Below, piece by piece: positions 122 through 16,903 of a stretch of 35,825 nt of DNA. Within the stretch, counting starts at the first letter, position 1. Every line of letters begins with the position of its first letter. Below the pieces are notes generated by a model. It was not told the origin of the DNA. It did not search any database and worked only from the letters and a program-made list of their open reading frames with translations. The DNA lies in NCBI GenBank assembly GCA_947175225.1, contig CAMWLX010000002.1, positions 1 to 35,825 on the forward strand, read 5' to 3'. This stretch comes from an uncultured Porphyromonadaceae bacterium (GTDB lineage: Bacteria > Bacteroidota > Bacteroidia > Bacteroidales > Muribaculaceae). The translations under genes and the position numbers were made by a program.

Positions 122-1211
122 ATTTAACGTAATAGATTTATTTTCTGGCGTAGGAGGTCTTTCGCATGGATTCAAAGTCGCTGGTTTTAATGTAGTTTTA
201 GCCAACGAAATTAATCCTACCATTGCTGAGTCTTACAGAAGAAATAATCCAGACACTTTAATGATCAATGTTGACATTAAAGACTTGGTTGATAACTTTG
301 ACAGGTATATTAATCAATTTGAATTTAACAAAGATTTACTAAATCATATTGATGTTATTATCGGAGGTCCTCCATGTCAAGGTTTTTCAATGGCTGGCGG
401 TCGCATCCGGAAAGCCAATGAATTTATTGAGGACGAAAGAAATTTTCTTTTCAAATATTATTTTAAGATGATTCAAAAGTTTGAACCATCATTCTTCGTA
501 TTTGAAAATGTCACCGGTATTCTTTCAAGTAATGGAGGTGATATAATTAGGCAAATTATATCCATCTTTTCAGACCCTAATAATTTAAAAAAAGGTGCAT
601 ATCATCTCAGTATTAATGTTCTTAATGCTGCTGATTTTGGCGTTCCTCAAAATAGGAAACGAGTTTTAATTATAGGCTCTAAATCCCCTTTCAACTTTCA
701 ACATATAAAGGAATTGGTTCTACCTACTTTGCCAAAGGAAAAGATTAAAATATTCTCAGCCCATCCGTCAGTTAAAGATGCAATATTTGATCTCGCGCAC
801 ATCTCTCCTTTTGCGGCAAACAACATTCCTAATCACGTCGCAACAAAGCATAGCGAGAAAGCATTAGCGAGAATTAGGAAGATTAAGCCTAATCAAAACT
901 GGACTGCTCTTGATGAGGAAATCAAATCTGTTCATAGTGGTTCTTATGGACGATTAGATTGGAATAAAGCGGCAACAACAATCACTACCAGATTTGATAC
1001 ACCTTCAGCAGGGCGTTATATACACCCTTCTCTTGATCGCACCTTAACACCAAGGGAGGCAGCTCGTATACAAACATTTCCAGATGATTTTATTTTTTTC
1101 GGTTCAAAATCTTCTATTTGCACGCAAATTGGTAATGCGGTTCCTCCTCGTTTAGCTGAATATATCGCTTATATGATTAGATATCTACTTAATAATGAAA
1201 GCATCAGATAA
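111..1211 (+). CDS. DNA (cytosine-5-)-methyltransferase
   Basis: The protein transfers a methyl group from SAM to C5 of cytosine and would protect host DNA from the nuclease encoded just downstream. All main C5-methylase motifs are visible in order: motif I DLFSGVGG (residues 9-16, SAM binding), motif IV GGPPCQGFS with catalytic Cys89, motif VI FENV (131-134), motif VIII QNRKRV, a variable target-recognition stretch, and the C-terminal RIQTFPDDF and QIGNAVPP motifs. At 366 residues it has the usual length for a restriction-modification methylase. The ATG overlaps the upstream gene's stop, and its 3' end overlaps the McrB-like gene by 17 bases, so translation is probably coupled. It appears intact. 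Confidence 0.95.
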   Translation: MEYKFNVIDLFSGVGGLSHGFKVAGFNVVLANEINPTIAESYRRNNPDTLMINVDIKDLVDNFDRYINQFEFNKDLLNHIDVIIGGPPCQGFSMAGGRIRKANEFIEDERNFLFKYYFKMIQKFEPSFFVFENVTGILSSNGGDIIRQIISIFSDPNNLKKGAYHLSINVLNAADFGVPQNRKRVLIIGSKSPFNFQHIKELVLPTLPKEKIKIFSAHPSVKDAIFDLAHISPFAANNIPNHVATKHSEKALARIRKIKPNQNWTALDEEIKSVHSGSYGRLDWNKAATTITTRFDTPSAGRYIHPSLDRTLTPREAARIQTFPDDFIFFGSKSSICTQIGNAVPPRLAEYIAYMIRYLLNNESIR

Positions 1212-3024
1212 CAAGTTAAAAAAACTTAAGTCCGCTGTAATATCTAAAGATGATTATTGGTATATAACAAAGCAAGAGTTAGATTTCAGTAAGCTTTGTT
1301 ATATTGCTGATATTTTGTCAAAGTGGGATGAGAATGGAGAACTTAATTATGAGGACTTTTTTAATAGTATAAAAATTACAGAACCTTATAATTCTTTCAT
1401 CAGCCAAACTGCTCACCGTGCTACTGTTAATCTCGCCCCCTATGGATTAGCAGTAGAAGGAAAAAATTACAACTCGTCTAATTTGACTCCAGTGTTTTAC
1501 AAAATTAAAAGTATTACTGGAGGCGATTTTAATAACACTACTCTATATCAAAAAATAATTGATAATCAAATAGAAAAAATAATTATTAAAACACAAAATA
1601 TCTGTATTTTTCCCATGATGTTCACGTTCAAGGTGCTCCTTACTTTGGGAGATGTCACGGGGTCTTACTCTGTGTCTAAAGACGAATTCAAAACATTCAT
1701 AGCCACCGCTTCTGAATGGAAAGAGTTTTTTGAAGTCGTTGATTCCATTTTGAGATATCGTTCTGACGAAAACTACAAAAAACAAATAGCACAAACTGTC
1801 GGTAAAAAGACCGCAAGTGATTCAAGACTTAATTTAGTTTTGAGTAATCACTCAATGATAGACGTATCCGATAATATAATATCTATCGTTTCGGAAAAAA
1901 TCGGAGAGGTTCGTATTAAAGTCGCTCAATACGAACTTACAAATCCTACGGTTATTGATATTGACAAAGCAAATAATAGGCTTGTATCAATCACAACATT
2001 TGATACTATCCAACAAGTATTGTTTGGAGCTCCTGGGGTTGGAAAATCGCATCATCTTAAATCGATATATGAAGATGAAAACGATGTGATTCGTATTACC
2101 TTCCATCCCGAAACCGATTATGCATCATTCGTTGGTTGCTATAAACCTCTATCTGATGGGGATGAAATTGTTTATAAATTTCAAGGACAGGCTTTTACAG
2201 AAGCTTATATTAAAGCATGGGAACGTTTTGTAGGCGATGCAGAACGTAAAGACACATACCTTGTTATAGAGGAAGTTAATCGTGGAAATTGCGCTCAAAT
2301 TTTTGGTGATATTTTCCAACTTCTTGACCGTAACGAGCAAGGTTTCTCTGAATATACCGTACGACCCGATAAAGATCTTGCAACTTATCTCAAAGATGAG
2401 TTCAATAACATAGCTTCAAATCTCAATAAAATAAAGCCCGGTCTTGATACAGGCGAAATTTTAATGTTGCCTCCTAATCTACATATCCTCGCAACTATGA
2501 ACACTTCAGATCAATCCCTTTTCCCGATTGACTCAGCGTTCAAGCGTCGCTGGGATTGGGTGTATATGCCGATAGAAACCAAACCCAAAGATGATGAAGG
2601 CGAAACCATTACTCGTCGTATAGTAACTAAAGAAAATATTTACGACTGGGGAGAATTTCTTGATAATGTCAATCAACGTATCTTCGCAACTACTGAATCA
2701 GAAGATAAGCAACTCGGATTTTGGTTCGTCAAACCGAAATCCGATGATACAACTATCTCGGCAGAAGATTTCGTTTCCAAAGTAATATTCTTCCTTTGGA
2801 ATGATATCTATAAAGATTTCGGAGATGATGCGACCTCAATCTTTTACTTTGCTCTGGACGGAAATCCTGATAGCAAGGAAAAGGTACGGCATTCTTTCAA
2901 AGACTTTACTCCTGCTTTTAAGAAAATAAATGTCTCTCTTGTTGACGCTTTTATAAAAAACTTGCGAGTTAAACCTATACCCGAAACGTCTGCTGATAAT
3001 TCTTCGGAGAACAGTACTGATTAA
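1195..3024 (+). CDS. McrB-like AAA+ NTPase, restriction subunit
   Basis: This is the motor subunit of a two-protein restriction enzyme of the McrBC/LlaJI kind. It would bind target DNA through its N-terminal half and translocate using nucleotide hydrolysis. The AAA+ core shows Walker A GAPGVGKS (278-285), Walker B VIEEVNRGN (357-365) and the McrB hallmark MNTSDQS (435-441) followed by an FKRRWDW arginine region. The first 270 residues lack motifs I can name and are the likely DNA-recognition part. The gene overlaps the C5-methylase gene and is followed after four bases by the nuclease gene. Whether GTP or ATP is used cannot be read from the sequence; GTP is usual for McrB. Confidence 0.88.
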   Translation: MKASDNKLKKLKSAVISKDDYWYITKQELDFSKLCYIADILSKWDENGELNYEDFFNSIKITEPYNSFISQTAHRATVNLAPYGLAVEGKNYNSSNLTPVFYKIKSITGGDFNNTTLYQKIIDNQIEKIIIKTQNICIFPMMFTFKVLLTLGDVTGSYSVSKDEFKTFIATASEWKEFFEVVDSILRYRSDENYKKQIAQTVGKKTASDSRLNLVLSNHSMIDVSDNIISIVSEKIGEVRIKVAQYELTNPTVIDIDKANNRLVSITTFDTIQQVLFGAPGVGKSHHLKSIYEDENDVIRITFHPETDYASFVGCYKPLSDGDEIVYKFQGQAFTEAYIKAWERFVGDAERKDTYLVIEEVNRGNCAQIFGDIFQLLDRNEQGFSEYTVRPDKDLATYLKDEFNNIASNLNKIKPGLDTGEILMLPPNLHILATMNTSDQSLFPIDSAFKRRWDWVYMPIETKPKDDEGETITRRIVTKENIYDWGEFLDNVNQRIFATTESEDKQLGFWFVKPKSDDTTISAEDFVSKVIFFLWNDIYKDFGDDATSIFYFALDGNPDSKEKVRHSFKDFTPAFKKINVSLVDAFIKNLRVKPIPETSADNSSENSTD

Positions 3025-3028
3025 CCCG

Positions 3029-4750
3029 ATGAGAATAGTAATTGAAGATTACCCATACGACGAGCAGAAACTTCGTGAAGTAGTTCCTGCCCGTATGTTG
3101 GATTTCCCAAATAAAAAAGGGGAAATACGACCTCCGTATGTCGGGTACTGTTACAACCCCGAAATTAACGATTGTATTTTCTTTCTCCCAAAGGTTGTCC
3201 TCACTAAAGATATAGAAGACGAAAAGGACGAAACCGGTCTCGGTCTTGTATTTGACAAATATAATCCTACCGATCTTCTTGATTTTGACAACAAAAACCT
3301 TGATGATGCAGACCGCAAATTCCTCCAGAATTTTGCTATTTGGATTTACCGCGCAATAAGTGTTTTTTATAAGCATAACAACACTACTATTGTCAGTCGT
3401 CATTCTTATGTCGGTGTTGATGCCTCACCTAAGAAAAAAGAAGGAACACTTATTGACGTGATATTATCTCTTATTCGATTCGCTAAAGAACACCGCGATT
3501 TCGTAATGTTTGAGATAAAAAATATCCATCGTGGATATAATCGCGTTAATTGGCGAAAAACCATCTCTCATCAATTACCTACCAAACAAGGTAAGTCTCC
3601 TGTATATCTGAATCCTATAAATAAGAAAAAACAGATTGATTTTGACGAGGAGTTGTTTGTTATTTATTTCTCAATTCTCGAATATGTTCATAAACAATTC
3701 AATTTTCCTGTCGAAATCAACTGTAACTATGAAACCATAAAGAGTGCCGAGTTTCGGCATTATCTTAACGGTTATGGCAAAATCCGTCTCCGTCAAATAA
3801 AGTATAAGTATTTTAGCGATACATCCTTGAAATTATGGAACTTATGTTATAAGTTCTTTGAGAACACAGATAGGCTGAATTCTACCCATAACGTTGAGGA
3901 TTTCCTTATTGCAAAGGACTTTAACATTGTATTCGAGTCAATCATCGAATCACTCCTGGGAGAAGAAGTTCCAAAAGGTCTCAAAGAACAATACGACGGA
4001 AAGAGGATAGACCATATATATCCTTACAATGCGCTTGTACATTCCGAGGACAACATATATCACATTGCCGATAGTAAATATTACAAAGTCGGTTCTTCCA
4101 TAGGTAAGGAGTCTATCTACAAACAATATACATACGCCAAGAATGTTATTCAACTTACTCTTAACATTCTCTTTGGCAAAGGAGATATGGAAACCAAGAA
4201 ACGGAACGGTTATATCCCATATCGAGATGAAATTACCGAGGGTTACAACATTACACCTAATTTCTTTATCTCTGCTAAAATCGAAAGCGAAAATTCCGGT
4301 GAACGGTATTCCTATTCCAATGACAATTTAACTCCACACAATGTCGATGATGAAGGTAATCCTATTATGAAGTATAGGATTTTCCAATTCGAGAATAGAT
4401 TGTTTGACCGCGACACACTGATACTTTCTCATTATGACATTAACTTCTTATATATCATTGCGCTCTATGGTAAGCATAATCAATTTGAGCAAGAAAGTTT
4501 CCGAGTGCGTGCTCGCAAGATCTTTAGGGAGTTTGCAATACGGCTCTTATCAGATTACTACTCCTTTTATAAGGTAGATCCTGCTCCAGAGTCTATTGAA
4601 GATTTTGTCAATTCTCATTTCAGAGAGTTATCAGGTAAACTTTTCCACTATAACGACACCCTCATTCTTGCTCTTGAAAAAGGACACGAAGACACCGCCA
4701 TAATAAAATCCAAATATTCCGAAATAATTACCGAGTACAAACTTGTATAA
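3029..4750 (+). CDS. McrC/LlaJI-like restriction nuclease subunit
   Basis: The predicted role is the cleaving partner of the upstream McrB-like NTPase. The C-terminal half holds a PD-(D/E)xK-type core: an acidic residue at D328 in RIDHIYPYN, then IADSKYYK with D348 and K350, then a downstream IYKQYTYAKN helix carrying the conserved Gln and Tyr. This arrangement is typical of McrC and LlaJI-family enzymes. The N-terminal 300 residues are likely the NTPase-contact and positioning domain. Length (573 residues) exceeds E. coli McrC and fits LlaJI-type subunits better. It is the fourth gene of a tight operon with two methyltransferases and an McrB partner. I saw no frameshift. Confidence 0.82.
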   Translation: MRIVIEDYPYDEQKLREVVPARMLDFPNKKGEIRPPYVGYCYNPEINDCIFFLPKVVLTKDIEDEKDETGLGLVFDKYNPTDLLDFDNKNLDDADRKFLQNFAIWIYRAISVFYKHNNTTIVSRHSYVGVDASPKKKEGTLIDVILSLIRFAKEHRDFVMFEIKNIHRGYNRVNWRKTISHQLPTKQGKSPVYLNPINKKKQIDFDEELFVIYFSILEYVHKQFNFPVEINCNYETIKSAEFRHYLNGYGKIRLRQIKYKYFSDTSLKLWNLCYKFFENTDRLNSTHNVEDFLIAKDFNIVFESIIESLLGEEVPKGLKEQYDGKRIDHIYPYNALVHSEDNIYHIADSKYYKVGSSIGKESIYKQYTYAKNVIQLTLNILFGKGDMETKKRNGYIPYRDEITEGYNITPNFFISAKIESENSGERYSYSNDNLTPHNVDDEGNPIMKYRIFQFENRLFDRDTLILSHYDINFLYIIALYGKHNQFEQESFRVRARKIFREFAIRLLSDYYSFYKVDPAPESIEDFVNSHFRELSGKLFHYNDTLILALEKGHEDTAIIKSKYSEIITEYKLV

Positions 4751-4751
4751 T

Positions 4752-5968
4752 ATGATTACGATATGTCATAACTTCGACCCTGAACAATTCGATTGGCTAT
4801 GGGCTAAATATGTAAATGGGGGCAACATTACACAACATTGCTTTATTTGCCTTAAAGGCACACAGAGTAAGAAATTCAGTAAGGCTTATAACCCTTATAT
4901 GGTTAATCAGACCGTTATCGTTATGGACGAAAAGCCGGAGGGTGAATATGATGCTATATATTTTTGTGGAGTTTCCAAAAAAGGTTTCGACCATAATGTT
5001 CACCTTGTAGTGCGCCCTGAACAGGGCACCAACTCTGAGTGGAAATTTGAGAATTGGCACGCTGATATTGAGAATGGCACAGTTGAAATACTTCCTTGTG
5101 CCGGAGAGTTAAAACCTGAATATTTCAGCGAGCCATATAACGACCATTATTATACCTGCCGTAACTTCCTTTGGATGGTGCGGCAATATTATCCTGAAGC
5201 TCTCGACCTTGACAAGCAGATAATAACCTGCGTCAAGGATTCCGATGGTAATTACGACACCGACCAACGTATCCCAATCTCGCTTGATGAGTGGCGCGTC
5301 ATTCTCCGCGACCTTGCAGAGAACGACGTTGACTCATGGAATCTTTTGCGTGAGTTTCACAAGGCAAAAGACCATACAGCGTATGTGCGCGATGTTGCTG
5401 TTGCTCGAAATTCTTCTCGCCCTGCAATTATTAAGAAAATTGAAGCCCTCGGACTTCTCATTGCCGGACGTAACGGCAAGTTCAGAGTGGTACGTCGTCT
5501 TAATCAGAGGTCAGAATGTTGGTGGCCGGTGTTCTTCAATATGAAATTTGAAGACTCGACCAAAGAAACAATCTATTCGCTCCGTCACGATCTTGTCGTT
5601 GTTATGGACGAAATGACAAAGACAAAGCGTAGCGGTGCTTCCACATCCATAGAGAGTAAAGGAACTGTCGGTTATCCTACATTTTATTTCTTTGAGATGG
5701 GTCTGAATGTCGGTGATGTTCTGACTTTCACCGAAGACCCCTCTATTACTGCTGTTGTTGCCACTAACCGAAAAGTTATCTTCAACGGAAAAAAACTTAC
5801 CTTACACCTCTCACAAACGAGTTGCGCGGTAAGAATAGCCGTATGGGTAAATATTGGACTTTCAACGGTAAGACTATTGACGAACTTTACTACGACACCT
5901 ATTTCCCCAACGGCAAGACCTTTGCAGAGTACCAAGCCGAAGAAGAACGTCGCAAAAATCAGCAATAA
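4752..5968 (+). CDS. RAMA-like domain protein, frameshifted in an A7 run
   Basis: The gene follows the nuclease stop by one base; the ATG at 4752 is preferred over the TTG at 4743. The first 230 residues are of unknown fold. A basic, winged-helix-like segment (about 210-255) follows. The C-terminus resembles RAMA/DUF4357-type modified-DNA reader domains: GDVLTF, a KVIFNGKK strand, then YWTFNGKTIDELYYDTY. That last part lies in the -1 frame. The zero frame runs on as Thr/Arg-rich nonsense to 6020. The switch maps to GGAAAAAAACTT (A7 at 5789-5795), so slippage or one extra A restores a 405-residue protein ending at 5966-5968. The gene is probably an accessory of the restriction system. It may be a pseudogene, an assembly indel or a programmed frameshift. 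Confidence 0.6.
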
Positions 5969-5970
5969 TT

Positions 5971-6126
5971 ATGGACGAATACGACGATTTAGACACCTAC
6001 AACTGCGAGCCGGTACATGACGGCTGGGTTGACTTCGACTATAACGAAAACACGGGCGAGTTGTCGGATCTCTTTGACGAAACTGACCTCGACCAATATA
6101 TAGACAACTTAAACGACTGGGACTAA
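5971..6126 (+). CDS. Very acidic 51-residue protein
   Basis: This ORF is too short for the track. It starts with ATG two bases after the restored stop of the RAMA-like gene and ends at TAA 6124-6126. It has 14 Asp and 5 Glu in 51 residues, with no Lys and no Arg, and ends in DNLNDWD. If the upstream gene is read in its zero frame (to 6020), the two overlap, so this start supports 5968 as the ancestral stop. No family is recognised. The composition recalls DNA-mimic antirestriction proteins, and its place beside a restriction operon fits that idea, but this is inference from charge only. Confidence 0.6.
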   Translation: MDEYDDLDTYNCEPVHDGWVDFDYNENTGELSDLFDETDLDQYIDNLNDWD

Positions 6127-7585: not shown

Positions 7586-8014
7586 TCCCACCTCCCAACG
7601 GAAAGAGGGTTGACCCGACAGGTCAATTTTTTTTCTCTACGAGCGAGTTCGGCTGCGCTCGGCATAGGTCAAGCGAGCTTGACTCTCTGCTCTCACTGGC
7701 ACGAACTGTCTGCTCACATCTGCCACCGCTCTCATTATCTATCGGCTCTCCGGCACCGCCTCTAAGCCGAGGGGCGCGGTCTCATCGGCTTGCCGCTTGC
7801 ACAGCAAGAACTCCTCCATATCTTCCGTGTTCCGTACAGGTTCGCTCGCGCGACTCCCGAGTTGACTACCCAAACAACGGGGGAGTTGGTTCTTGCCATA
7901 CAGTATTCCTTCAGTTTGTCAATCTCAGACGTTCAATAATTTAGGATAACCGAATTGCAACATTTTGGTGTTCGATTTTAAATGCGAAACTCCCAATTTA
8001 TCAAAAAATATTGC
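7586..8014. other. Non-coding spacer block 1, downstream half
   Basis: No gene is seen. It holds a hairpin GTCAAG-CGAG-CTTGAC at 7668-7683 placed between GCTCGGCATAG and TCTGCTCTC. The same flanks with different but still pairing stems occur at about 17336-17370 and 17562-17596. A second shared segment (CTCTCATTATCTATCGGCTC, then CCGAGGGGCGCGGTC) has a near-identical partner at about 18099-18153 and can form the stem CGCCTCT/AGGGGCG. These elements follow the small ORF in both spacer copies, so the whole unit appears duplicated and diverged. Confidence 0.5.
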
Positions 8015-8022
8015 TAACTTTG
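8015..8022 (+). promoter_or_regulatory. Promoter -7 box for the WYL regulator
   Basis: TAACTTTG matches the Bacteroidetes -7 consensus TAnnTTTG and is followed by CACAT. No clear TTTG is found 19-21 bases upstream. It would give a leader of roughly 110-140 bases before the WYL gene. Confidence 0.55.
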
Positions 8023-8054
8023 CACATATAAAACGCTCAAAATCTGACAATGAC

Positions 8055-8126
8055 CTAAAGTAACAAAGACTAACGGCGAGAGCCGAAAAACTTTGAGAAC
8101 TCCTGAGTAGTCGTTACGGGCTTTAG
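8055..8126 (+). ncRNA. Structured 5' leader of the WYL gene
   Basis: Three nested helices can form: CTAAA (8055) with TTTAG (8122), GTAAC (8060) with GTTAC (8113), and GACTA (8068) with TAGTC (8108). A terminal hairpin CGGC-GAGA-GCCG (8074-8085) lies inside. This gives fifteen outer pairs with small bulges. It lies between the promoter box and the start codon, so it would be part of the mRNA. It matches no riboswitch class I know. Attenuation or binding of a regulator is inference. Confidence 0.4.
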
Positions 8127-8164
8127 TCAGCCTTCAGATGCTACTTGGGTATTCTGTAGATAAT

Positions 8165-9175
8165 ATGGCGCAGACTAAAAACGCACTGATACGGCAGCGA
8201 GTCATTGACAGATGTCTCCGGAGTCCGAAACAGTACTCTATCATGGATATGATGGAGAAGTGTAACATTGCGCTTGAAGAGGCTGGGTATAAACCTGTAA
8301 CTTCCAAAAATACCATTTTAGAGGACCTTCGTGGTATCGAAAGTAACTTTCCGGAAGCAAGAATTATTCAGAAGAAATCGGGAAGGTCTCTTTTCTACGA
8401 ATATGAGGATAAGAATTTCTCAATCTATAATATCCCCTTAGATGATGATGGTATGGCTAAGTTAGCCCAAACCATTTTCATTTTATCAAAGTTTGAGGGT
8501 ATGCCGAATTTTGAGTGGATTGATGAAATGATAAATCATTTCAAGTCCACACTCAATATACCTACCACAAAAGACTCTGTTGTTGGGTTTGACGATAATA
8601 TCTATCTCAAAAACCGTAATCACTTTTCACGGTTATTCAGTGCGATAATTGCCGAGCAAGCATTAATTATCACTTACCGTCCTTTTGGGAAAGATCCACT
8701 TGTGTATAACTTTCATCCTTATTATCTAAAACAGTATAATAAAAGATGGTTTCTATTTGGATGTGTAGATGGGAAAAACAACTTGTCAAATTTTCCTTTA
8801 GATCGTATAGAGGATATTGCAAACAGTACAGTTCCCTATCTTCCAAACACAAGGTTTGACTTCAATGACCTCTTTGAAGATGTCATTGGAGTATCAAATC
8901 TTTTTGATGATGCAGAAGTAATCAATTTCTCTGTCTCCTCTCAATCATTAGATTATATTACGACAAAACCAATCCTGCCGAATCAAAGGCATATAGAAAC
9001 ACGGGGGAATGAGACAATATTCGAGATAAAGACTATTATTAATAAGGAATTGATCCAGTTAATCTTATCATATGGTTCTGCTATTACAGTCTTGAAACCC
9101 CAGAAACTCGTCGAATTGATTTCAGAAGAAATAACAAAAAGTTTGAAAAATTATCAATCCGTTCAGATAAACTGA
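8165..9175 (+). CDS. WYL-domain transcriptional regulator
   Basis: This is a predicted ligand-responsive DNA-binding repressor or activator. Residues 1-80 (from MAQTKNALIRQRVIDRC) look like a winged-helix domain. The centre carries a typical WYL domain: ALIITYRPFG, then FHPYYLKQYNKRWFLFGC, then NFPLDRIEDI, matching the family pattern around its W-Y/F-L core. A C-terminal extension ends in a helix. The start at ATG 8165 is preferred because the protein then begins like related regulators; ATG 8138 would add nine residues. WYL regulators of this layout (BrxR/CapW kind) often control phage-defence operons. Its stop codon lies inside an inverted repeat that recurs before the next promoter, so it probably controls the operon from 9332. 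Confidence 0.85.
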   Translation: MAQTKNALIRQRVIDRCLRSPKQYSIMDMMEKCNIALEEAGYKPVTSKNTILEDLRGIESNFPEARIIQKKSGRSLFYEYEDKNFSIYNIPLDDDGMAKLAQTIFILSKFEGMPNFEWIDEMINHFKSTLNIPTTKDSVVGFDDNIYLKNRNHFSRLFSAIIAEQALIITYRPFGKDPLVYNFHPYYLKQYNKRWFLFGCVDGKNNLSNFPLDRIEDIANSTVPYLPNTRFDFNDLFEDVIGVSNLFDDAEVINFSVSSQSLDYITTKPILPNQRHIETRGNETIFEIKTIINKELIQLILSYGSAITVLKPQKLVELISEEITKSLKNYQSVQIN

Positions 9176-9195
9176 ACGCATAGCCACTAATTTTG
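9161..9195 (+). promoter_or_regulatory. Operator A and promoter A
   Basis: An inverted repeat GTTCAG-ATAAA-CTGAAC (9161-9177) is followed after exactly 10 bases by TAATTTTG (9188-9195), a consensus -7 box, and GCAGC. The repeat occupies the -33 region, so protein bound there would be expected to affect RNA polymerase directly. It overlaps the WYL stop codon. Confidence 0.65.
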
Positions 9196-9257
9196 CAGCG
9201 TCGATATGAGAGCCGGATGTAGAGACTCAAATATCGGCGCTAAAATTTTTATTAACC

Positions 9258-9292
9258 GTTCAGTTAGATTGAACTCATTGCATTTACCTTTG
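9258..9292 (+). promoter_or_regulatory. Operator B and promoter B
   Basis: GTTCAG-TTAGA-TTGAAC (9258-9274) is the same 17-bp operator with one half-site change. It too is followed after exactly 10 bases by a -7 box, TACCTTTG (9285-9292), then GCAGC. Together with operator A this makes a tandem regulated promoter pair 97 bases apart, ahead of the gene at 9332. Confidence 0.65.
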
Positions 9293-9331: not shown

Positions 9332-9664
9332 ATGACAACCAATTCCAAGAAAGGTATCTTCTCTAGTTTCAAGGAGAAGCATCCCAAGGCGACAAAAGCA
9401 ATCATTACTACCGGTAAGGTTGTTGGTATTGCTGTAGTCGCAGCAGCAACTGCAACAGTTGCATTCGTTTTCCTTAATAAACCCGGACTTGGTAAGGATT
9501 GTCCACGCGCACACCTAACCAAAGATGGCACACCTAAAGTAGGATATCAGTCGCCCCAACGAGCCAATTTTCAGGTGGTGAAGGATGCAGTACTTCACAA
9601 GACCATCATGCGCCCTTATGAATGTCGTACTTGCGGAAAGTTTCATGTCGGTCACAAACACTAA
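9332..9664 (+). CDS. Small membrane-anchored protein with Zn-knuckle end
   Basis: This 110-residue protein has a basic start (MTTNSKKGIFSSFKEKHPKA), one membrane helix (about 22-48, TGKVVGIAVVAAATATVAFV) and a C-terminal metal-binding-like motif YECRTCGKFHVGHKH (CxxC plus His residues). The track begins at 9206, but that start precedes promoter B and its operator; ATG 9332 (or 9314) is the natural start after promoter B. The end resembles the short CxxCGxxHxGH tails seen in small phage and plasmid proteins. It is the first gene of the operon probably controlled by the WYL regulator. Function unknown. Confidence 0.6.
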   Translation: MTTNSKKGIFSSFKEKHPKATKAIITTGKVVGIAVVAAATATVAFVFLNKPGLGKDCPRAHLTKDGTPKVGYQSPQRANFQVVKDAVLHKTIMRPYECRTCGKFHVGHKH

Positions 9665-9698
9665 TCTCTTATTTGTTTAACCTTTAATCTCATTTATT

Positions 9699-10844
9699 AT
9701 GAACGAGAAATCCACTCGCGCAACCTCTGGCATTACATCTATGGTCTCGACCAATCAGATTGAGTCTAAAACTCAATGGCCCAAGTATCACACTAAAGGA
9801 GGTCATGGTTTTGTCTCGGAAGATGCCCATGCTATGCATGACCGTCAGTGCGGACGCACAGTTGACCAATGCGGACGGAGCAATGTACTGAACGGTGCTG
9901 ATCGTATCGTTAATGGTCAACCTATACAAACGAAATATTGCGGAACAGGAGCCCGCACTTTCTCATCTGGATTTGACTCCACTACAGGTCAGTTCCGTTA
10001 TGCCGGGCAGAAGTTTGAAGTCCCCTCAGACCAATACTCTGAAATTGTACAACGTATGCGCCAAGCCATCAGCGATGGAAAGGTTCCCGGAATAAGCGAC
10101 CCAAATCAGGCTACCGATATTGTTGTCAAAGGTCGTTATACCTATGCACAGGCAAAGAATATGGCTAAAGCCGGGAATCTCGACTCGATCAAGTTCGATA
10201 TGCGCGTTCAGGCGGCTGCTTGCGCATTCGCCTGTGGAATCTCTGCCGGCATCACTTTCATCATAGCCAAATGCAATGGTGAATCAACTGGAGACGCTCT
10301 TAAAAAAGCCGCCGTGTCAGGTGTAAGGTCAGCAGGCGTTGCAATGCTCGGTGGTGTGATGGCCCAGCAATTCCTTCGTACGGCAGCAGGGAGAAGTTGT
10401 GCCGCTGCGGCGACTCACGCAGTTCGTCCGATGATGCAAGCCGCAATGAAGACAGAATTAGGTAAATCTGTCATCACAAAGACGGCTTCGGCAGTTGCGG
10501 GTAAAAGCATAACAGGAGCAGCTGCAGCAAATGTTTTGACCAAGGCTGCTCGAACTAATATAATAGTCAGCGGAGCAATGACCGTAGCTACAACGATACC
10601 TGACGCTGTCAAACTTTGTCGCGGTAAAATTAGTGGTGCCGAATTTTGCGAAAACACAGCTTACAATGTCACTAGTGTCGGAGGTGGTTGGGCTGGTGCT
10701 TCAGCAGGGGCAGCTATCGGGAGTCTGATTTGTCCCGGTGTTGGTACAGCTATCGGAGGCATTATCGGAGGTATTGCCGGAGGTATGGGAGCCTCAATTG
10801 GCACTAAAAAATTTATTTGTTCACTCAAAACCATTTGCGCATGA
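9699..10844 (+). CDS. Membrane protein with unidentified N-terminal domain
   Basis: This protein of 381 residues has two parts. Residues 30-170 form a soluble domain with strings that look strongly conserved: GGHGFVSEDAHAMHD (34-48), NGADRIVNGQPIQTKYC (65-81), FEVPSDQY (106-113), a VPGISDP turn and YAQAKNMAKAGNLDS. The D68...Q77-x-K79 spacing resembles a PD-(D/E)xK nuclease strand-turn, with E41 as a possible third acid; this is only suggestive. Residues 170-381 are Ala/Gly-rich and hydrophobic, ending in a glycine-zipper repeat (GGIIGGIAGGMGASIG) that suggests membrane insertion. I recall similar sequences only as hypothetical proteins. It could be a membrane-tethered effector. Confidence 0.65.
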   Translation: MNEKSTRATSGITSMVSTNQIESKTQWPKYHTKGGHGFVSEDAHAMHDRQCGRTVDQCGRSNVLNGADRIVNGQPIQTKYCGTGARTFSSGFDSTTGQFRYAGQKFEVPSDQYSEIVQRMRQAISDGKVPGISDPNQATDIVVKGRYTYAQAKNMAKAGNLDSIKFDMRVQAAACAFACGISAGITFIIAKCNGESTGDALKKAAVSGVRSAGVAMLGGVMAQQFLRTAAGRSCAAAATHAVRPMMQAAMKTELGKSVITKTASAVAGKSITGAAAANVLTKAARTNIIVSGAMTVATTIPDAVKLCRGKISGAEFCENTAYNVTSVGGGWAGASAGAAIGSLICPGVGTAIGGIIGGIAGGMGASIGTKKFICSLKTICA

Positions 10845-11062
10845 TTATCTGTTCGCCATTTTTCGCTGTCAAACGTATGGCTAAGATATTCTCAGAAAGT
10901 TATAATCACTTACAGAACGATTACATCAAACGCCACTACTGCGATGAGTCTGGGAATTTGCTATTCACGCCTTGCATCTCTCGTCGCCATCAACTCAAAT
11001 TTGCCGTCAAGGCTGGAGTAACTGCGCTCTCCACAGAAATAGCGCTTTCATCAATTGTCTAA
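10841..11062 (+). CDS. Short protein of unknown function
   Basis: This 73-residue ORF starts at ATG 10841, which overlaps the preceding TGA as ATGA, a common translational-coupling arrangement; the track start 10817 would run into the previous gene. The sequence has a hydrophobic beginning (MIICSPFFAVK), a polar middle (YNHLQNDYIKRHYCDESG) and a hydrophobic tail that might dip into the membrane (KAGVTALSTEIALSSIV). No family is recognised. It sits between the membrane protein and the YaaW-like gene in the same operon. ATG 10877 is another possible start. Confidence 0.5.
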   Translation: MIICSPFFAVKRMAKIFSESYNHLQNDYIKRHYCDESGNLLFTPCISRRHQLKFAVKAGVTALSTEIALSSIV

Positions 11063-11079
11063 CTTTAATACCTTTTACT

Positions 11080-11826
11080 ATGATTGTTGATTCCAACCTA
11101 TCATTCCTTCAGTACTGCTCTAACGATGATCTGAAAACGCTCTGCGACACGCTTACTCACGATAATAAAGGGGAGGTTCGCCTAAGCGAACAGCTTACTG
11201 ACAACGATGTTTATCTTCGTTGCTATCCCGATAATATGAAAGGTATGTGGCAAGAGATTGCAGCTGAACTGCAACGTTTTGGAGGTAACACCTTTGCCAA
11301 TATCTTCCGTGGCGGCGTTGGCGCAACCTATGAAAGCATCCTGCGCGATGTATGCAAGAAGATGAAGGTTCGAATACCCTCATGCTCATCAGTAGAGGAA
11401 ATCGAAATTGCTCTCCTCTCAAAATACTGCGAGGAAACCATCGGTAGTATGGATATTGATCTGCTCCGCGAACTATCTGTTGAAATTGGTATCGAGCCGC
11501 AGAGTTACAATAAACAAATTGTAGCCGCTGCAATCCTTGTTGCACTTCGCAGAGGTGGCGGAAAAGTTCTTGCTCCTGTAATCTATTATATCGGCTCAAA
11601 CATCACCCGGATCCTCATTGGGCGTGGTGTATATCTTGCTACAGCAGGAGTCCTGGGACGCGCTGCTGCGGCACTTACAGGTCCCATCGGTTGGACGCTA
11701 ACCGCCGGATGGTTGGCATTTGACATCGCCTCGCCGGCATATCGCGTTACCGTTCCTGCCGTAATTCAAGTCGCTTGTATGCGTCTGAAACACAATTCTC
11801 ACTTTCTTACTGCCCAATGCGTATGA
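11080..11826 (+). CDS. YaaW-like protein (UPF0174 family)
   Basis: The protein (248 residues from ATG 11080) matches the E. coli YaaW pattern over its length: SFLQYCSNDDL at the start, LTHDNKGEVRLSEQL, IAAELQRFGGNTFAN, GATYESILRDVCKK, a central acidic helix region, and the ending YRVTVPAVIQVACMR. YaaW-type proteins are uncharacterised; they combine an N-terminal DUF3944-like segment with a ubiquinol-cytochrome-c-chaperone-like region and a glycine-rich hydrophobic stretch (here about 185-225). The track start at 10972 overlaps the previous gene and is rejected. Its stop overlaps the M48 gene start as ATGA. A membrane-associated quality-control role with the neighbouring protease is inference. 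Confidence 0.8.
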   Translation: MIVDSNLSFLQYCSNDDLKTLCDTLTHDNKGEVRLSEQLTDNDVYLRCYPDNMKGMWQEIAAELQRFGGNTFANIFRGGVGATYESILRDVCKKMKVRIPSCSSVEEIEIALLSKYCEETIGSMDIDLLRELSVEIGIEPQSYNKQIVAAAILVALRRGGGKVLAPVIYYIGSNITRILIGRGVYLATAGVLGRAAAALTGPIGWTLTAGWLAFDIASPAYRVTVPAVIQVACMRLKHNSHFLTAQCV

Positions 11827-12608
11827 GAATACCGAACAACCGGTTTATGCATCCAGCAGATGCTAAAGCAATACTTGCGCTCAAAAAAATTCCGGGATTC
11901 AATTATCTTGTCCGCAAGTATATGGAGTATGGCGGGGAAAGTCTCTATCGCGGACAAAACCTTGCCAATCATGTGAAGGTCTACGAAGATAACTTTCCCG
12001 CACTTTACCGAGTATTCAAGGAGACGGTAACATCGCTTGGCATTGATGAACCGGAATTGTATGTTTACAACGACCCCTACATCAATGCATACACCTATGG
12101 CGAGACCCGGACATTCATCGCCATTTCAAGCGGCGCGGTAGAGGCTCTATCTCCAGATGAGCTGAAAGGTGTATTGGCACATGAGTGTGGGCACATCGTT
12201 TGCCACCACACGTTCTATAATACGTTGCTTTATTCACTCGTTGAACTTGCCGACTCATTTAAGGGTATTCCGTATATGCTTTTTGGCCCCCTTGTTCTTG
12301 CTCTTCAATACTGGAGCCGTCGAAGCGAGTTGAGTGCAGATCGTTGCGCGACTTCAATTGTTGGCGCACATGCATATCAAAAGGTTCTTGCCAAATTAGC
12401 TTCAGGCATGAAGTCTTTCAAGCCAAATGGCAAGGAATTGCTAAATCAAGCCTACGAATACCACGACATCGTTGAAGGCTCGTTGTGGGGCAAAATACAG
12501 CAGAACTGCCAAATGGCATTTCAGTCTCATCCCCAACTCTGCGAACGAGCCTACGAGGTAGACCGTTGGGGCAAGTCATGTATTTATAGGAAATTTTGGT
12601 TATCTTGA
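11823..12608 (+). CDS. M48-family metalloprotease
   Basis: This is a zinc-dependent endopeptidase of the HtpX/Ste24-like M48 clan. The catalytic motif is LAHECGHIVCHH (HExxH), with the third zinc ligand in RSELSADRCA about 60 residues later, exactly the M48 pattern. An N-terminal region (1-90) precedes the protease core. A hydrophobic stretch (YMLFGPLVLALQYW) lies between the two motifs and may contact the membrane. At 261 residues it is slightly shorter than HtpX and lacks obvious paired N-terminal membrane helices. The start is ATG 11823, overlapping the YaaW-like stop; ATG 11817 is an alternative. As last gene of the WYL-controlled operon it may process one of its membrane partners. Confidence 0.88.
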   Translation: MRIPNNRFMHPADAKAILALKKIPGFNYLVRKYMEYGGESLYRGQNLANHVKVYEDNFPALYRVFKETVTSLGIDEPELYVYNDPYINAYTYGETRTFIAISSGAVEALSPDELKGVLAHECGHIVCHHTFYNTLLYSLVELADSFKGIPYMLFGPLVLALQYWSRRSELSADRCATSIVGAHAYQKVLAKLASGMKSFKPNGKELLNQAYEYHDIVEGSLWGKIQQNCQMAFQSHPQLCERAYEVDRWGKSCIYRKFWLS

Positions 12609-12642
12609 CTCCGGTCATTTCCAGACGCTTAACTAATTGAAA

Positions 12643-12674
12643 TTTGTATATCTCCCCAATATTCACTAATTTTG
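12643..12674 (+). promoter_or_regulatory. Consensus promoter for the second operon
   Basis: TTTG (12643-12646), then 20 bases, then TAATTTTG (12667-12674) is a full match to the Bacteroidetes TTTG-N19-21-TAnnTTTG promoter. Only four bases (CGCT) separate the box from the ATG at 12679, so the transcript would be nearly or fully leaderless. The GTTCAG operator is absent, so this operon is probably not under the same direct control as the one before it. Confidence 0.75.
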
Positions 12675-12678
12675 CGCT

Positions 12679-13614
12679 ATGTCTAAAGAAAAAAATAAAC
12701 GCAACTTCTTATCCAAGATATTTGCAAAAGGCACAAATTTTCTCAATCATGGAGAAGATTTGCATGAAACCGCAACCAAATACGAACAAATTTTCGAGAA
12801 GTACAAGCAACTTCTCGAAGTAACTACTCACGATGCTATGGAACTCTATAATTTGCGCAAGGACGCTTTTTATACTTTGCTTCGCTTTCAGACATATGTT
12901 AATGCTCTTTCATCCTGTCCTACTATAATAACTAACGGTGCCTCTCTTGCCGTTAGAAAGTCTGCCACCATAAAAGAAGCCATTGATGCCGAATCCAAAG
13001 AGGAGTTCAAAAACGGCAGTAATAAAAATAATAATGGTGGTCTTTTGGGTGCGGCTGCCGCCGGAGGTGCGTTGGCAATCGGAGGTTCCACAGCATTAAT
13101 GGCTATCGCCACGACATTTGGAACAGCAGGAACCGGAGTTGCGATTTCATCTTTAGGTGGTGTTGCCGCAACTAATGCAGCTTTGGCTTGGATCGGTGGA
13201 GGCACTCTTGCCGCAGGGGGTGCCGGAGTGTCAGGGGGTGCGACTGTGCTCGGTCTCATGGGACCGATTGGTTGGGGTATTGCCGGATTAAGTGCCATTG
13301 CCTTTATTGGTGTGTCAGCCTCAAATGGTAAAAAGAATCAGGAAACCATTACTGAAATCGAAAAAGAAATTCAAAGGATTAAAACTTTCATGGGACAACT
13401 TAACGTTGCACGTAACAATATTGCCTCGATAAAGCTTTTTACTCAACGCCACATTGAAACTGTTAACGATTTTCTCAATGCATCCTTGAATACTCAATCA
13501 TTTCCCAATGACTATGCGTTGGGATCATATCCACACAAAGAACTTTTCAACATAACCGAAAAAGCCAAAAATCTTGGCAAGATGTCCAATCAGTCGGTTG
13601 AAATAATGAAGTGA
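12679..13614 (+). CDS. Glycine-zipper membrane protein with flanking coiled coils
   Basis: The protein has 311 residues. A basic start and a helical, coiled-coil-like region (about 25-95) lead to an Asn-rich linker. Then comes a long Gly/Ala-rich hydrophobic core (about 115-220) with phrases such as LLGAAAAGGALAIGG and GPIGWGIAGLSAIAFIG, and a second helical region (ITEIEKEIQRIKTFM) to the end. Comparable proteins with the ATTFGTA and GGVAATNAALAW strings are widespread but, as far as I know, uncharacterised. The layout suggests oligomeric membrane insertion, as in pore-forming or membrane-remodelling effectors, but that is inference. It is the first gene of a four-gene operon; the GTGA/TGA overlap with the next gene implies coupling. 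Confidence 0.65.
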   Translation: MSKEKNKRNFLSKIFAKGTNFLNHGEDLHETATKYEQIFEKYKQLLEVTTHDAMELYNLRKDAFYTLLRFQTYVNALSSCPTIITNGASLAVRKSATIKEAIDAESKEEFKNGSNKNNNGGLLGAAAAGGALAIGGSTALMAIATTFGTAGTGVAISSLGGVAATNAALAWIGGGTLAAGGAGVSGGATVLGLMGPIGWGIAGLSAIAFIGVSASNGKKNQETITEIEKEIQRIKTFMGQLNVARNNIASIKLFTQRHIETVNDFLNASLNTQSFPNDYALGSYPHKELFNITEKAKNLGKMSNQSVEIMK

Positions 13615-14537
13615 AACTCGTTATGACTACACAAGAATTAATCCAGGACATAGAGTCTAATAAGCATGATATTACTTTGCGTTTACGTCGTGTAGTACTT
13701 GACCCTATAAAGGCTTTATTGTCAGATGGCGTTGCTACATCCGAATTTAGTTTGGAACAGGGTCAGAAATCCAAGGAGATTCTTGCTAATGCAAATTCAA
13801 TTATGGATTTCTTTAGCAAGAAATGGAACAATCCTGATGATTCTGAAGACAATCAACTTGAAGCACTGAGAGAGGGTATCAAAAAGTCTACCGAAATAAT
13901 TATTCCGGAAATCGAAAACGTCATAATTCCTTTCTATAACTTATGTTTTGAAAATAAACATTACTTCTCGATGCCTTTTGAAGCAAACAGAGCTTACAAG
14001 AGAATACTCCAAAGCATTTCTTCGGTTGAGTCCGTCATTAACGGAGTTAGAAACTTGGAGAAAATTAAGAGTTCTGAAACTATGAAATTATCGGAGTATT
14101 CCATTCTTGAACTTCTGCAAGAGGGACTTGACGAAATAGATGCCATCGTCACATACAACGATGAATATGAGAAATCCTTTATCAAAGTCAAGATTGACAA
14201 GGATGAATTTCTCTCACACGTACTTGCTAACATTAAAGAAAATATTGAAACCCATGCATTTGGGACTTCAGCGTTTGCCGGCAAATCTCTCACAGAAAAG
14301 AAAGTGATGATTGACATTGTTTCGACGCATTCTTCTCTTTATGTTACGATAGCCAACAATGGCACACCATTCAAGGGTGATTTTAAAAAAGTCTTTGACC
14401 ATGGATACTTCCACGGAAGCAAAGGACATACAGGCACAGGTATGTATTCTCTAAGGAAGACTATGCAGGAGCTTGGTGGAGATGCTGAATTCTATTATGG
14501 CAATCATGGTGTAACATATAAATTAATCTTTACATAA
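13611..14537 (+). CDS. Sensorless histidine-kinase-like ATPase
   Basis: The C-terminal third is a GHKL/HATPase domain. The N box is NIKENIETH (207-215, with both Asn and the His). The G1 region is IANNGTPF (247-254). The lid and G2 region read GSKGHTGTG, then LRKTMQELGG (to 290). Upstream is an all-helical region with KHDITLRLRR near the start (H19 counted from GTG 13611), which could be a non-canonical H box; no transmembrane, PAS or GAF sensor is present. The GTG at 13611 overlaps the previous stop; ATG 13623 is an equally reasonable start. Its immediate neighbour is a receiver-like protein, so the two probably form a cytosolic phosphorelay or a nucleotide-controlled switch. Confidence 0.8.
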   Translation: MKLVMTTQELIQDIESNKHDITLRLRRVVLDPIKALLSDGVATSEFSLEQGQKSKEILANANSIMDFFSKKWNNPDDSEDNQLEALREGIKKSTEIIIPEIENVIIPFYNLCFENKHYFSMPFEANRAYKRILQSISSVESVINGVRNLEKIKSSETMKLSEYSILELLQEGLDEIDAIVTYNDEYEKSFIKVKIDKDEFLSHVLANIKENIETHAFGTSAFAGKSLTEKKVMIDIVSTHSSLYVTIANNGTPFKGDFKKVFDHGYFHGSKGHTGTGMYSLRKTMQELGGDAEFYYGNHGVTYKLIFT

Positions 14538-15532
14538 TGAGTAAACCAAAATATAAAATCCTTTGGCTTGATGATTTTTTCGCTCCAATTCAAGAAGATG
14601 GGCGAGACGACCAGAAGGAATCTATTGAAATTTTCCTCGATGATATAAACGATGCGGAAGATGAAGGACTTTCTGTCAAAGGCGTATCTTCATTCGAAGA
14701 ATTCAAAGCTCAACTACCAAATATTAACGCCTATCATGGTGTAGTTTTCGACTTGCGCGGAATGACTAAAAATGGGGAAGTGACTGATCAAGTCGTCCAC
14801 GATGCTATTAATCTTATCAAGTCATCTAATAACGACATACCTATGTATGTCTATTCATCCAATGCCGCTATGAGTAAGTTTGAACTTACCATTAACGACA
14901 TCAAAAAGAATGGCCGCGCATTCCCTAAAGGTAAAGGTCCTGAAGATCTTATCAAAAAGATTATTTCAGACATGGATAATCTTTACAATTTCTATGTTGG
15001 TCACGAAGAATGTCGGGATATCTTCCATGAAGACTTCCTTGATTCTACGCTCAAACCTGTTATGGACCAAATAGTGAAACGCTATTCTGACGCATCTCTC
15101 AAGTTTAATCCTTATAATCCCATGAGGCAAATTTTGGAAAACATGCTTCAAAAGCTTAATGACATTGGGATTATAAAGGTCGACAACAACTCGAAAGACA
15201 CTTTCAATCTTCGTGTCCGCTATCTTTGTGAGTTTTACAATCCAAAATTAGACGCAGATAATAATGTCATTATTGATAATGAGGGAAAAACTGTGCGCAA
15301 TTTCCACGACCCCGTTGTCCCATTTGATATGATCAATCAGGAAACCAAATATCTTATTTGTTTCCTCGGTGATATGACAAATCACAATAGTCATTTTATC
15401 ACCAAGCATTCTGACAGCGACCTGGGATCTTACTACGACCGCAACGTTTTCAACGCTACGTTCTGCGCATTCTTTGCCGTCATGAAGTGGTACTACCTGT
15501 TTATGCATGAGCGTTCTTTATATAGCGCATAA
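14537..15532 (+). CDS. Receiver-like protein with helical C-terminal domain
   Basis: Residues 1-150 show the key points of a response-regulator receiver in order: acidic pair in ILWLDD (D12-D13), phosphoacceptor-like D72 in VVFDLRGM, Ser107 in MYVYSSNA, and Lys131 in FPKGKG. The first loop is enlarged. No DNA-binding output follows. Instead residues 165-331 are helical, with RQILENMLQKL (197-207) and GDMTNHNSHF (278-287). The latter recalls the N-x-x-S-H helix of HEPN/DUF4145-like or Abi-type domains, many of which are RNases; the match is weak. Start and stop overlap with the kinase gene by one base. It is the likely partner of that kinase. Confidence 0.7.
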   Translation: MSKPKYKILWLDDFFAPIQEDGRDDQKESIEIFLDDINDAEDEGLSVKGVSSFEEFKAQLPNINAYHGVVFDLRGMTKNGEVTDQVVHDAINLIKSSNNDIPMYVYSSNAAMSKFELTINDIKKNGRAFPKGKGPEDLIKKIISDMDNLYNFYVGHEECRDIFHEDFLDSTLKPVMDQIVKRYSDASLKFNPYNPMRQILENMLQKLNDIGIIKVDNNSKDTFNLRVRYLCEFYNPKLDADNNVIIDNEGKTVRNFHDPVVPFDMINQETKYLICFLGDMTNHNSHFITKHSDSDLGSYYDRNVFNATFCAFFAVMKWYYLFMHERSLYSA

Positions 15533-15535
15533 CAG

Positions 15536-16903
15536 ATGAAACAGATAGGAAAACTCTCTGCGTCCGGATGCAGTCAAATGTTATCATTATCTATGATATC
15601 GAGTGCATCTAATACCATATTGGAAGAACTCGGAACTATCCTTAAGATTAAATCTTTTAAGGATAAAACTAAAGTCAAATCGATTAAATCGCAAAATTCT
15701 CTATATATCTCCATTTTCGAAGAAAAATATAATGCGGATATTGTAGAGGACGAAAGCCCGGATAAAGATTTCCAATTCTCATCTGCCCCCTCTGATTTCT
15801 CCGCTTTGTCATTATCTGAGATTCGTGCATTTCAACAATTTAAGGGCAAATATGTTATACCATCAACAGTTAAATCGCACAAATGTCCCAAACTAGAACC
15901 TTGTCCAGTTTGTTCTGACGGTAAGTGTACTGAATGTCATGGTAACAAGACTGTTACCTGCGATGTCTGTGATGGTAGCACGGAGTGTCCTTCATGCGAT
16001 GGGTCAGGACGGTATCCTTGTTATTCTTGTAATCAGTCAGGTGAATGCCAACATTGCGATGGCACAGGAGAAGAAAACTGTGATGATTGCGATGGCGACG
16101 GATGGGTGAGGGTCGAATGCCGTGCTTGTAACGGAACAGGGCGTTATACCCTCCGTAATGGGTATGAAGTTGAATGTCGTGTTTGTCATGGAAGTGGGAA
16201 TCATCATAAAGAAGATTGCTGGACTTGTAATGGTACTGGTTTCGTGGATTGTCATGTCTGTGATGGCAGTGGACAATGTCAAAAGTGCGGTGGAGAAGGG
16301 CACGTTGAATGTCGCGCCTGTCATGGCACAGGTACGTGTGGAAAATGTAAAGGGAAAGGGAAACTGAAATGCTGGAATTGTAAAGGAACTGGTCTTTGCC
16401 CTTCTTGCAAAGGCAGACAAACTATTCCTTGTCGCAGATGCTTAGGGTCAGGTTTGTATCAAACTTTCAAATGTATATCTATTGACATGAACAATCATAC
16501 TTATTTGCTCAAGGATAAATCTTTAGAACGACAGTTTAATATTGACCTACAATCATTAGGTAAAAGACAAATATATAATGGCATTCCCTACATCATTGAT
16601 TTTGGGAAGCCTACCATTAATGATATTCCGATTGTTGATTTTCTTACGCGAGTATATGACTCATCATATCTTGAAAAAATCTATCAATATCGTGACTCGC
16701 TATTTAATCGCGATGGTTCTGCTTTAATTGATTCTAATATTTACGTCAAATCATCTATTGTCATTGAACCAATTCCTGTGATTAAATGTATTGTTGAATA
16801 CTCTAACGAGCTATTTTATTTCTATATTATAGGTACAGATGGGAGAGTCTTCGCAGACAAAACTCCATCCATATGGGATAGATTTTGCGCTTGGCTTCAT
16901 TAA
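15536..16903 (+). CDS. Protein with 17 CxxC repeats, DnaJ-zinc-finger-like
   Basis: Residues 123-305 hold 17 CxxC pairs, many followed by xGxG as in the DnaJ zinc-binding domain (CDGSG, CNGTG, CHGTG, CKGTG). DnaJ itself has four such repeats, so this array is more than four times longer. There is no J domain or HPD motif. The first 120 residues are Ser-rich with a short acidic tract. The last 150 residues form a beta-rich domain with MNNHTYLLKDKSL near the array. The protein probably binds many zinc ions and either recognises unfolded protein or senses redox or metal state. It starts three bases after the receiver stop and ends the operon. Confidence 0.75.
   Translation: MKQIGKLSASGCSQMLSLSMISSASNTILEELGTILKIKSFKDKTKVKSIKSQNSLYISIFEEKYNADIVEDESPDKDFQFSSAPSDFSALSLSEIRAFQQFKGKYVIPSTVKSHKCPKLEPCPVCSDGKCTECHGNKTVTCDVCDGSTECPSCDGSGRYPCYSCNQSGECQHCDGTGEENCDDCDGDGWVRVECRACNGTGRYTLRNGYEVECRVCHGSGNHHKEDCWTCNGTGFVDCHVCDGSGQCQKCGGEGHVECRACHGTGTCGKCKGKGKLKCWNCKGTGLCPSCKGRQTIPCRRCLGSGLYQTFKCISIDMNNHTYLLKDKSLERQFNIDLQSLGKRQIYNGIPYIIDFGKPTINDIPIVDFLTRVYDSSYLEKIYQYRDSLFNRDGSALIDSNIYVKSSIVIEPIPVIKCIVEYSNELFYFYIIGTDGRVFADKTPSIWDRFCAWLH

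What the first reader, a model, noticed from the sequence alone, without database searches (positions are those of the whole stretch)
9161..9292. Twin operators with identical geometry at tandem promoters
GTTCAG-N5-CTGAAC and GTTCAG-N5-TTGAAC each lie exactly 10 bases before a TAnnTTTG box and both boxes are followed by GCAGC. The first overlaps the stop codon of the WYL regulator gene. The arrangement places the site over the -33 region at both promoters, pointing to direct control by the neighbouring WYL protein.
Basis: partly seen in the sequence, partly recalled or inferred. Interest (0 to 1): 0.7.

Follow-up and report, generated by a model that had tools for sequence, protein, structure and literature searches.

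The report
Portable WYL switch for phage-defence operons
Two matching DNA landing sites for a WYL-type regulator sit at a fixed distance in front of two promoters of a phage-defence operon, and the same gene-plus-site unit recurs across the Bacteroidota in front of many unrelated defence systems, so it looks like a portable on/off switch rather than a local curiosity.

Summary
Both palindromes end 10 nt before a TAnnTTTG box; the composite occurs twice in the window (0 in 100 shuffles) and 16 times in 297 family genomes (0 in reversed controls). Among 46 non-redundant WYL homologues, 24 have a strong palindrome behind the WYL gene, chosen without looking at the box. In 19 the first TAnnTTTG begins exactly 10 nt later; the other five have a near-consensus box in the same register. 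The site is a 25-bp palindrome whose left arm covers the -33 element, which these promoters lack. Window and closest relatives share WYL leader, gene, operator 1 and P1 box (81-85% DNA identity, ending 2-6 nt after the box), while the genes behind are swapped: type I R-M, BREX, AAA/OLD-like, methylase-ATPase fusions. Operator 2 lies outside this cassette, next to the window's JukA-like operon. Direct control by WYL is well supported; the sign is open. I lean to a DriD/PafBC/SiwR-like activator (fixed register, no -33, closest fold) over a BrxR/CapW-like repressor. Side find: the WYL leader is a covarying RNA, absent from Rfam, that precedes many other defence operons.

The parts
8015..8022 (+). 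-7 box (TAACTTTG) of the WYL gene's own promoter; no operator in front of it
8063..8155 (+). Structured leader RNA of the WYL mRNA, conserved and covarying, no Rfam match; terminator-like stem before the start codon
8165..9175 (+). WYL regulator gene (wHTH, three helices, WYL, WCX); the ORF is open from 8138, start at 8165 chosen by comparison with homologues
9157..9181 (+). Operator O1, 25-bp palindrome ATCCGTTCAGATAAACTGAACGCAT (core 9161-9177), overlapping the WYL stop codon
9188..9195 (+). P1 -7 box TAATTTTG, 10 nt after O1; homology with the sister cassettes ends 2-6 nt behind it
9197..9241 (+). Hairpin directly behind P1, with T-rich tail to about 9254; possible weak terminator or small RNA
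   Evidence: z -2.44; not called by the terminator scan
9254..9278 (+). Operator O2 (core 9258-9274), outside the cassette homology
9285..9292 (+). P2 -7 box TACCTTTG, 10 nt after O2
9332..9664 (+). First cargo gene; start at 9332 (or 9314) rather than 9206, from comparison with L102
9699..16903 (+). Rest of the cargo: glycine-zipper protein, JukA-like, M48 peptidase, PDC-M09A-like, GHKL ATPase, unknown 331-aa protein, Cys-rich zinc-finger-like protein

Best explanation
The unit is a portable regulatory cassette: a WYL gene, a 25-bp operator at its 3' end, and a promoter that fires away from it into whatever defence genes lie behind. The WYL protein binds each operator as a dimer, its left half lying on the -33 element, in a fixed register to the -7 box. 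In the window the cassette's own promoter (P1/O1) is followed by a second, cargo-side promoter (P2/O2) with the same geometry, so both are set by one regulator. Most likely (about 0.5) the protein is an effector-dependent activator of the DriD/PafBC/SiwR type that holds RNA polymerase on promoters lacking a -33 element, probably switched by a nucleic-acid fragment bound in the WYL domain during phage attack or DNA damage; a repressor is nearly as likely (about 0.4). Shown by computation: geometry, conservation, register, absence of -33, cassette border, cargo swapping, fold similarity. Inferred: binding, sign, effector. The confidence given here is for direct binding and control at both sites; for the activator reading alone it is 0.5.
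For: Palindrome picked without the box: 19 of 24 non-redundant loci have the first TAnnTTTG exactly 10 nt on, five a near-consensus box there, background 0.0017 per position. Composite sites are rare and 13 of 16 lie in islands with one of these WYL genes. Arm base 3 follows helix residue 58. Cassette homology ends 2-6 nt past the P1 box while cargo is swapped. Operator promoters lack the -33 TTG seen in 19 of 115 controls (0 of 30). Fold and profile place the protein nearer to the activators DriD and PafBC than to CapW and BrxR. DriD sites keep one distance from -10 and overlap poor -35 elements; SiwR has the same gene order and site position.
Against: No binding or expression data. The tested WYL regulators of defence operons (BrxR, CapW) are repressors. 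The -7 boxes here are near-perfect and most control promoters also lack -33, so the promoters may work unaided. The helix-arm correlation is confounded by clade. About half of the non-redundant homologues show no strong GTTCA/GTGCA-type palindrome, though several of those have other arms in register. Model pTM is only 0.50.
Confidence: 0.85

Rival explanations
1. WYL is a BrxR/CapW-type repressor: the apo dimer sits on the -33/spacer region of P1 and P2, keeps the defence genes low, and leaves when the WYL domain binds a signal during infection.
For: BrxR and CapW are repressors of defence operons and bind palindromes within the promoter; the Acinetobacter BrxR site is a 25-bp pseudo-palindrome over -35, and the E. 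fergusonii island has two BrxR boxes. The -7 boxes are strong.
Against: A blocking site need not keep an exact 10-nt register across a phylum; published BrxR and CapW sites differ in position. Fold and profile are nearer to the activators. In the window the WYL promoter itself has no operator.
Confidence: 0.4
2. P1 with its hairpin is a relic: the cargo once driven by the cassette's own promoter was replaced by a unit that brought its own operator-promoter P2, so only P2 matters now.
For: Cassette homology ends at P1; hairpin with T-rich tail follows P1; L105 has an operator-promoter followed by a perfect hairpin, with no long gene close behind. Compatible with the main explanation.
Against: The hairpin is not called by the terminator scan, P1 is intact in arm, spacing and box, and it points into the operon.
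Confidence: 0.4
3. The palindromes belong to another regulator or are a generic promoter feature, and the WYL gene is only a neighbour.
For: WYL genes are common (294 of 297 genomes have some homologue), and three composite sites had no such WYL gene in the stretch fetched.
Against: The exact composite is found in only 12 of 297 genomes and follows these particular WYL genes; 52 of 53 leader-RNA promoters and the selected controls lack it; arms change with the WYL clade.
Confidence: 0.06

Closest known systems
DriD (Caulobacter WYL activator; PMC12340889)
   Same: Nearest solved fold; wHTH, three-helix bundle, WYL, WCX; pseudo-palindromic site at a constant distance from -10, over a poor -35
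   Different: Regulates scattered DNA-damage genes, not adjacent swappable defence cargo; site centred on -35, here the left arm covers -33; activation not shown here
SiwR (Mycolicibacterium WYL activator; PMC10693628)
   Same: WYL gene directly upstream of its target operon; palindrome between -35 and -10
   Different: Targets DinB-like genes, other phylum and promoter type; no swapped cargo described in the passages read
BrxR (PMC9122601, PMC9122589)
   Same: WYL regulator tied to diverse defence systems; inverted repeats; two boxes in one island; one site is 25 bp and overlaps -35
   Different: Repressor; sites lie around its own promoter and differ in position; more distant in fold and profile
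CapW (PMC9122588)
   Same: WYL dimer on a palindrome at the promoter of a defence operon
   Different: Site over -10, tied to CBASS, repressor; more distant in fold
PafBC (PMC11804915)
   Same: WYL activator replacing -35 recognition; high profile and fold similarity
   Different: Heterodimer; does not bind its promoter without RNA polymerase; many targets

Membership tests
WYL transcription factors | N-terminal winged HTH with WYL and WCX domains | tested here: met
   Pfam WYL and WCX above cut-off; wHTH in the AF2 model
DriD/PafBC-type WYL activators | Linker with three helices between wHTH and WYL | tested here: met
   Model helices 94-108, 114-130, 151-162; best Foldseek hits DriD and PafBC; pTM only 0.50
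DriD/PafBC-type WYL activators | Site at a fixed distance from the -10/-7 box, with poor or missing -35/-33 | tested here: met
   10-nt register; 0 of 30 with -33 TTG
DriD/PafBC-type WYL activators | Activates transcription through contact with RNA polymerase when ssDNA is bound | not testable with these tools
   Needs biochemistry
BrxR/CapW-type defence repressors | WYL gene next to a defence operon, with a palindrome in its promoter | tested here: met
BrxR/CapW-type defence repressors | Closest similarity to BrxR or CapW | tested here: not met
   Foldseek and profile rank DriD and PafBC above both
BrxR/CapW-type defence repressors | Represses the operon in uninfected cells | not testable with these tools
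   Needs reporter assays

The most novel reading that the evidence does not exclude
The cassette is a two-layer control device for swappable defence genes. A new structured leader RNA with a terminator-like stem, shared by many unrelated restriction/defence operons of the Muribaculaceae and weakly seen in other Bacteroidales families, controls synthesis of the WYL protein, which then activates, rather than represses, any cargo placed behind its -33-less promoter.
Probability: 0.3. Interest if true: 0.8.

Novelty: new variant of a known kind. Interest (0 to 1): 0.6.

Why it matters
It gives a testable operator code for a large group of WYL regulators in a phylum for which I found no such study, predicts from sequence alone which operons they control, and raises the possibility that defence systems of gut Bacteroidota are switched on by an activator when phage or DNA damage is sensed. 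The cassette border shows how one regulator can acquire new defence cargo while keeping control of it.

Tried and rejected
A conserved whole operon: rejected, the cargo proteins are not found behind the other WYL genes (only two weak 19-21% hits to one protein). Operator at the WYL gene's own promoter in the window: none. A direct sequence hit of WYL to a solved structure: none by phmmer; only the profile reached WYL proteins. Helical phasing of the two operators (97 bp, about 9.2 turns) gives no clear sign of looping. A strict terminator behind P1: not called by the scan. Independent proof of recognition from covariation: weakened, because other columns separate the two clades equally well. 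An Rfam family for the P1 hairpin or the WYL leader: none. Checking O2 in the close cargo relative L102: its contig ends 3 nt before the box. More distant JukA-like cargo relatives (L086-L088, L099-L101) show no such operator at their boxes. A paper on this leader RNA or on Bacteroidota WYL defence regulators: not found in the held library.

Full report
OBSERVATION. The two sites are as described: GTTCAG-N5-CTGAAC at 9161-9177 and GTTCAG-N5-TTGAAC at 9258-9274, each 10 nt before TAATTTTG (9188-9195) or TACCTTTG (9285-9292), both followed by CAGC. Site 1 overlaps the WYL stop codon. With up to two mismatches the bare palindrome is no commoner in the window than chance gives, but the exact form occurs at no other place in the 3.77-Mb own genome, and the composite with box and spacing is never seen in 100 shuffles of the window. 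In 297 genomes of the family it occurs 16 times against 0 for the pattern read backwards; 11 of the 16 lie beside one of the WYL genes and two more in the same islands, while three (L116-L118) had no such WYL gene in the stretch fetched.

CONSERVATION. WYL homologues came from 297 family genomes and from genome contigs. A joint scan behind each WYL gene found the palindrome-10-box unit in most Bacteroidales, flavobacterial and sphingobacterial loci. To avoid circularity I reduced the set to 46 loci below 80% identity and picked the best palindrome without using the box: 24 loci had at least 9 of 10 arm matches. In 19 the first TAnnTTTG starts exactly 10 nt after the palindrome; in five (L021, L040, L043, L071, L075) no exact box follows within 60 nt, but one search shows a 4-5 of 6 match at the same distance. 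Background is 0.0017 boxes per position. The arms differ by clade (GTTCA, GTGCA, ATGCA, GTGAA, CCTCA) and the 10-nt spacer varies freely, so the register itself is what is kept. The average site is 25 bp, ATnnGTTCA-N7-TGAACnnAT. In sphingobacteria and a few Bacteroidales a similar site also lies in front of the WYL gene itself.

WHERE THE SITE SITS. In 115 non-redundant control promoters from the same loci, TTTG is enriched at exactly -24 from the T of TAnnTTTG (11, against 0-3 at other positions) and TTG at -23 (19); this is the Bacteroides -33 element (TAnnTTTG at -7, TTTG near -33: PMC7366714). None of 30 operator promoters has either. The left arm, with its nearly invariant C at -24 and invariant A at -23, occupies that place. 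The promoters of the leader-RNA operons described below show no such palindrome in 52 of 53 cases.

WHO BINDS. Pfam gives WYL and WCX. In the recognition helix, residue 58 is Arg in all 18 non-redundant proteins of the G class and Asn or Val in 14 of 15 of the T class. Base 3 of the arm lies 6 from the centre, and Acinetobacter BrxR contacts positions 6 or 7 through Arg38 of its SRQQ motif (PMC9122589). Other columns separate the clades as well, so this is consistent with recognition, not independent proof.

SIGN OF CONTROL. The AlphaFold2 model (pLDDT 80.8, pTM 0.50) shows wHTH, three helices, WYL, WCX. Foldseek ranks DriD (2.9e-14) and PafBC (1.1e-13) above CapW (5.6e-8) and BrxR (1.0e-6); a profile search also puts PafBC and DriD above CapW and BrxR. 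DriD sites keep one distance from -10 and overlap poor -35 elements (PMC12340889); its three-helix bundle contacts RNA polymerase. PafBC is activated by ssDNA and takes the place of -35 recognition (PMC11804915). SiwR is a WYL activator encoded directly upstream of its target, with a palindrome between -35 and -10 (PMC10693628). Against this, BrxR (PMC9122601, PMC9122589) and CapW (PMC9122588), the tested WYL regulators of defence operons, are repressors, and the E. fergusonii island has two BrxR boxes. The near-perfect -7 boxes and the rarity of -33 elements in general also fit a repressed but self-sufficient promoter. I put activator at 0.5 and repressor at 0.4.

CASSETTE AND CARGO. The window's cargo proteins are not found behind the other WYL genes, apart from two weak 19-21% hits to one protein. 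First or early genes there are type I R-M (L038, L057, L058, L067, L068), BrxC (L045), AAA/OLD-like ATPases (L004, L039, L073), PDC-M33AB (L052) and N6-methylase-HATPase fusions (L033-L036, L048, L051) (L036 by similarity). Window and L033-L036 share 81-85% DNA identity from 8001-8132 to 9197-9201, i.e. to 2-6 nt past the P1 box, and nothing behind; the first cargo proteins of L033-L036 are only 21-31% alike. O1/P1 therefore belong to the WYL cassette. O2/P2 lie outside it. Second operators in register also occur in L035, L041, L046, L051, L052, L054, L105 and L106, 2.8-7.4 kb further on; in L035 and L041 they stand directly before a long open reading frame. The window's peculiarity is that its two units are only 97 bp apart. 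Between them is a hairpin (9197-9241, z -2.44) with a T-rich tail; whether it ends P1 transcripts is unknown. Comparison with L102 puts the first cargo start at about 9332, not 9206.

SIDE FIND. The WYL mRNA leader (8063-8155) folds better than all 200 shuffles, matches no Rfam family and recurs, by plain blastn, in 63 of 297 family genomes. In most copies examined it lies between a TAnnTTTG promoter and a start codon. Of 45 first genes scanned, 22 carry an N6-methylase domain and others are helicase, HsdR-like, AAA or WYL proteins. On 22 sequences the structure has 96.9% of cells paired and 27 two-sided changes, against 9.0 in shuffles and at most 7 in slid versions. In 39 copies 79% have a T-run behind the stem (15% background) and most ATGs follow within 9-18 nt. 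A covariance model finds six copies in the own genome and weak ones in three other families of the order; in two of these (L211, L214) only the capping hairpin AGGCUUUGGUCRGCCU and a U-tailed stem are recognisable. I suggest a defence-operon attenuator; no function has been tested.

LIMITS. Most loci are metagenome assemblies; the L033 record is titled Clostridia although its cassette is nearly that of the Bacteroidales loci, so its bin is doubtful. Related loci are not fully independent. Nothing here measures binding or transcription.

Noticed in passing
window 8063-8155; copies in L148-L207 and own-genome contigs C55, C106, C148: A structured, covarying leader RNA without Rfam match precedes the WYL gene and the first genes of many unrelated restriction/defence operons; its stem is followed by a T-run just before the start codon, so it may be a transcription attenuator.
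   Followed up: partly
L033 7061-10725, L034 1434-4953, L035 3851-6346, L048 7022-9475, L051 7083-11411: WYL islands carry an N6-methylase fused to a histidine-kinase-type ATPase domain, in L033-L036 and L048 followed by a smaller receiver-like protein; possibly an unusual defence system.
   Followed up: no
window 9332-16903: The cargo operon combines a glycine-zipper protein, JukA-like, M48 peptidase, PDC-M09A-like, GHKL ATPase, an unknown 331-aa protein and a Cys-rich protein; L102 keeps it at 45-97% identity.
   Followed up: partly
window 111-6020: Upstream of the cassette lie a DNA methylase, an McrBC-like pair (named from the sequence, not scanned) and a gene with a partial PDC-S57 match, so the area is a defence island.
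   Followed up: no
L105 6682 (minus strand); L106 9914 (plus strand): Second operator-promoters in these islands are followed by inverted repeats in the leader; in L105 the hairpin is perfect and no long gene follows closely.
   Followed up: partly
L068, L069, L072, L075, L076, about 53-67 nt upstream of the WYL match: In sphingobacteria the WYL gene's own promoter carries the same type of operator in the same register, so autoregulation is expected there but not in the window.
   Followed up: no
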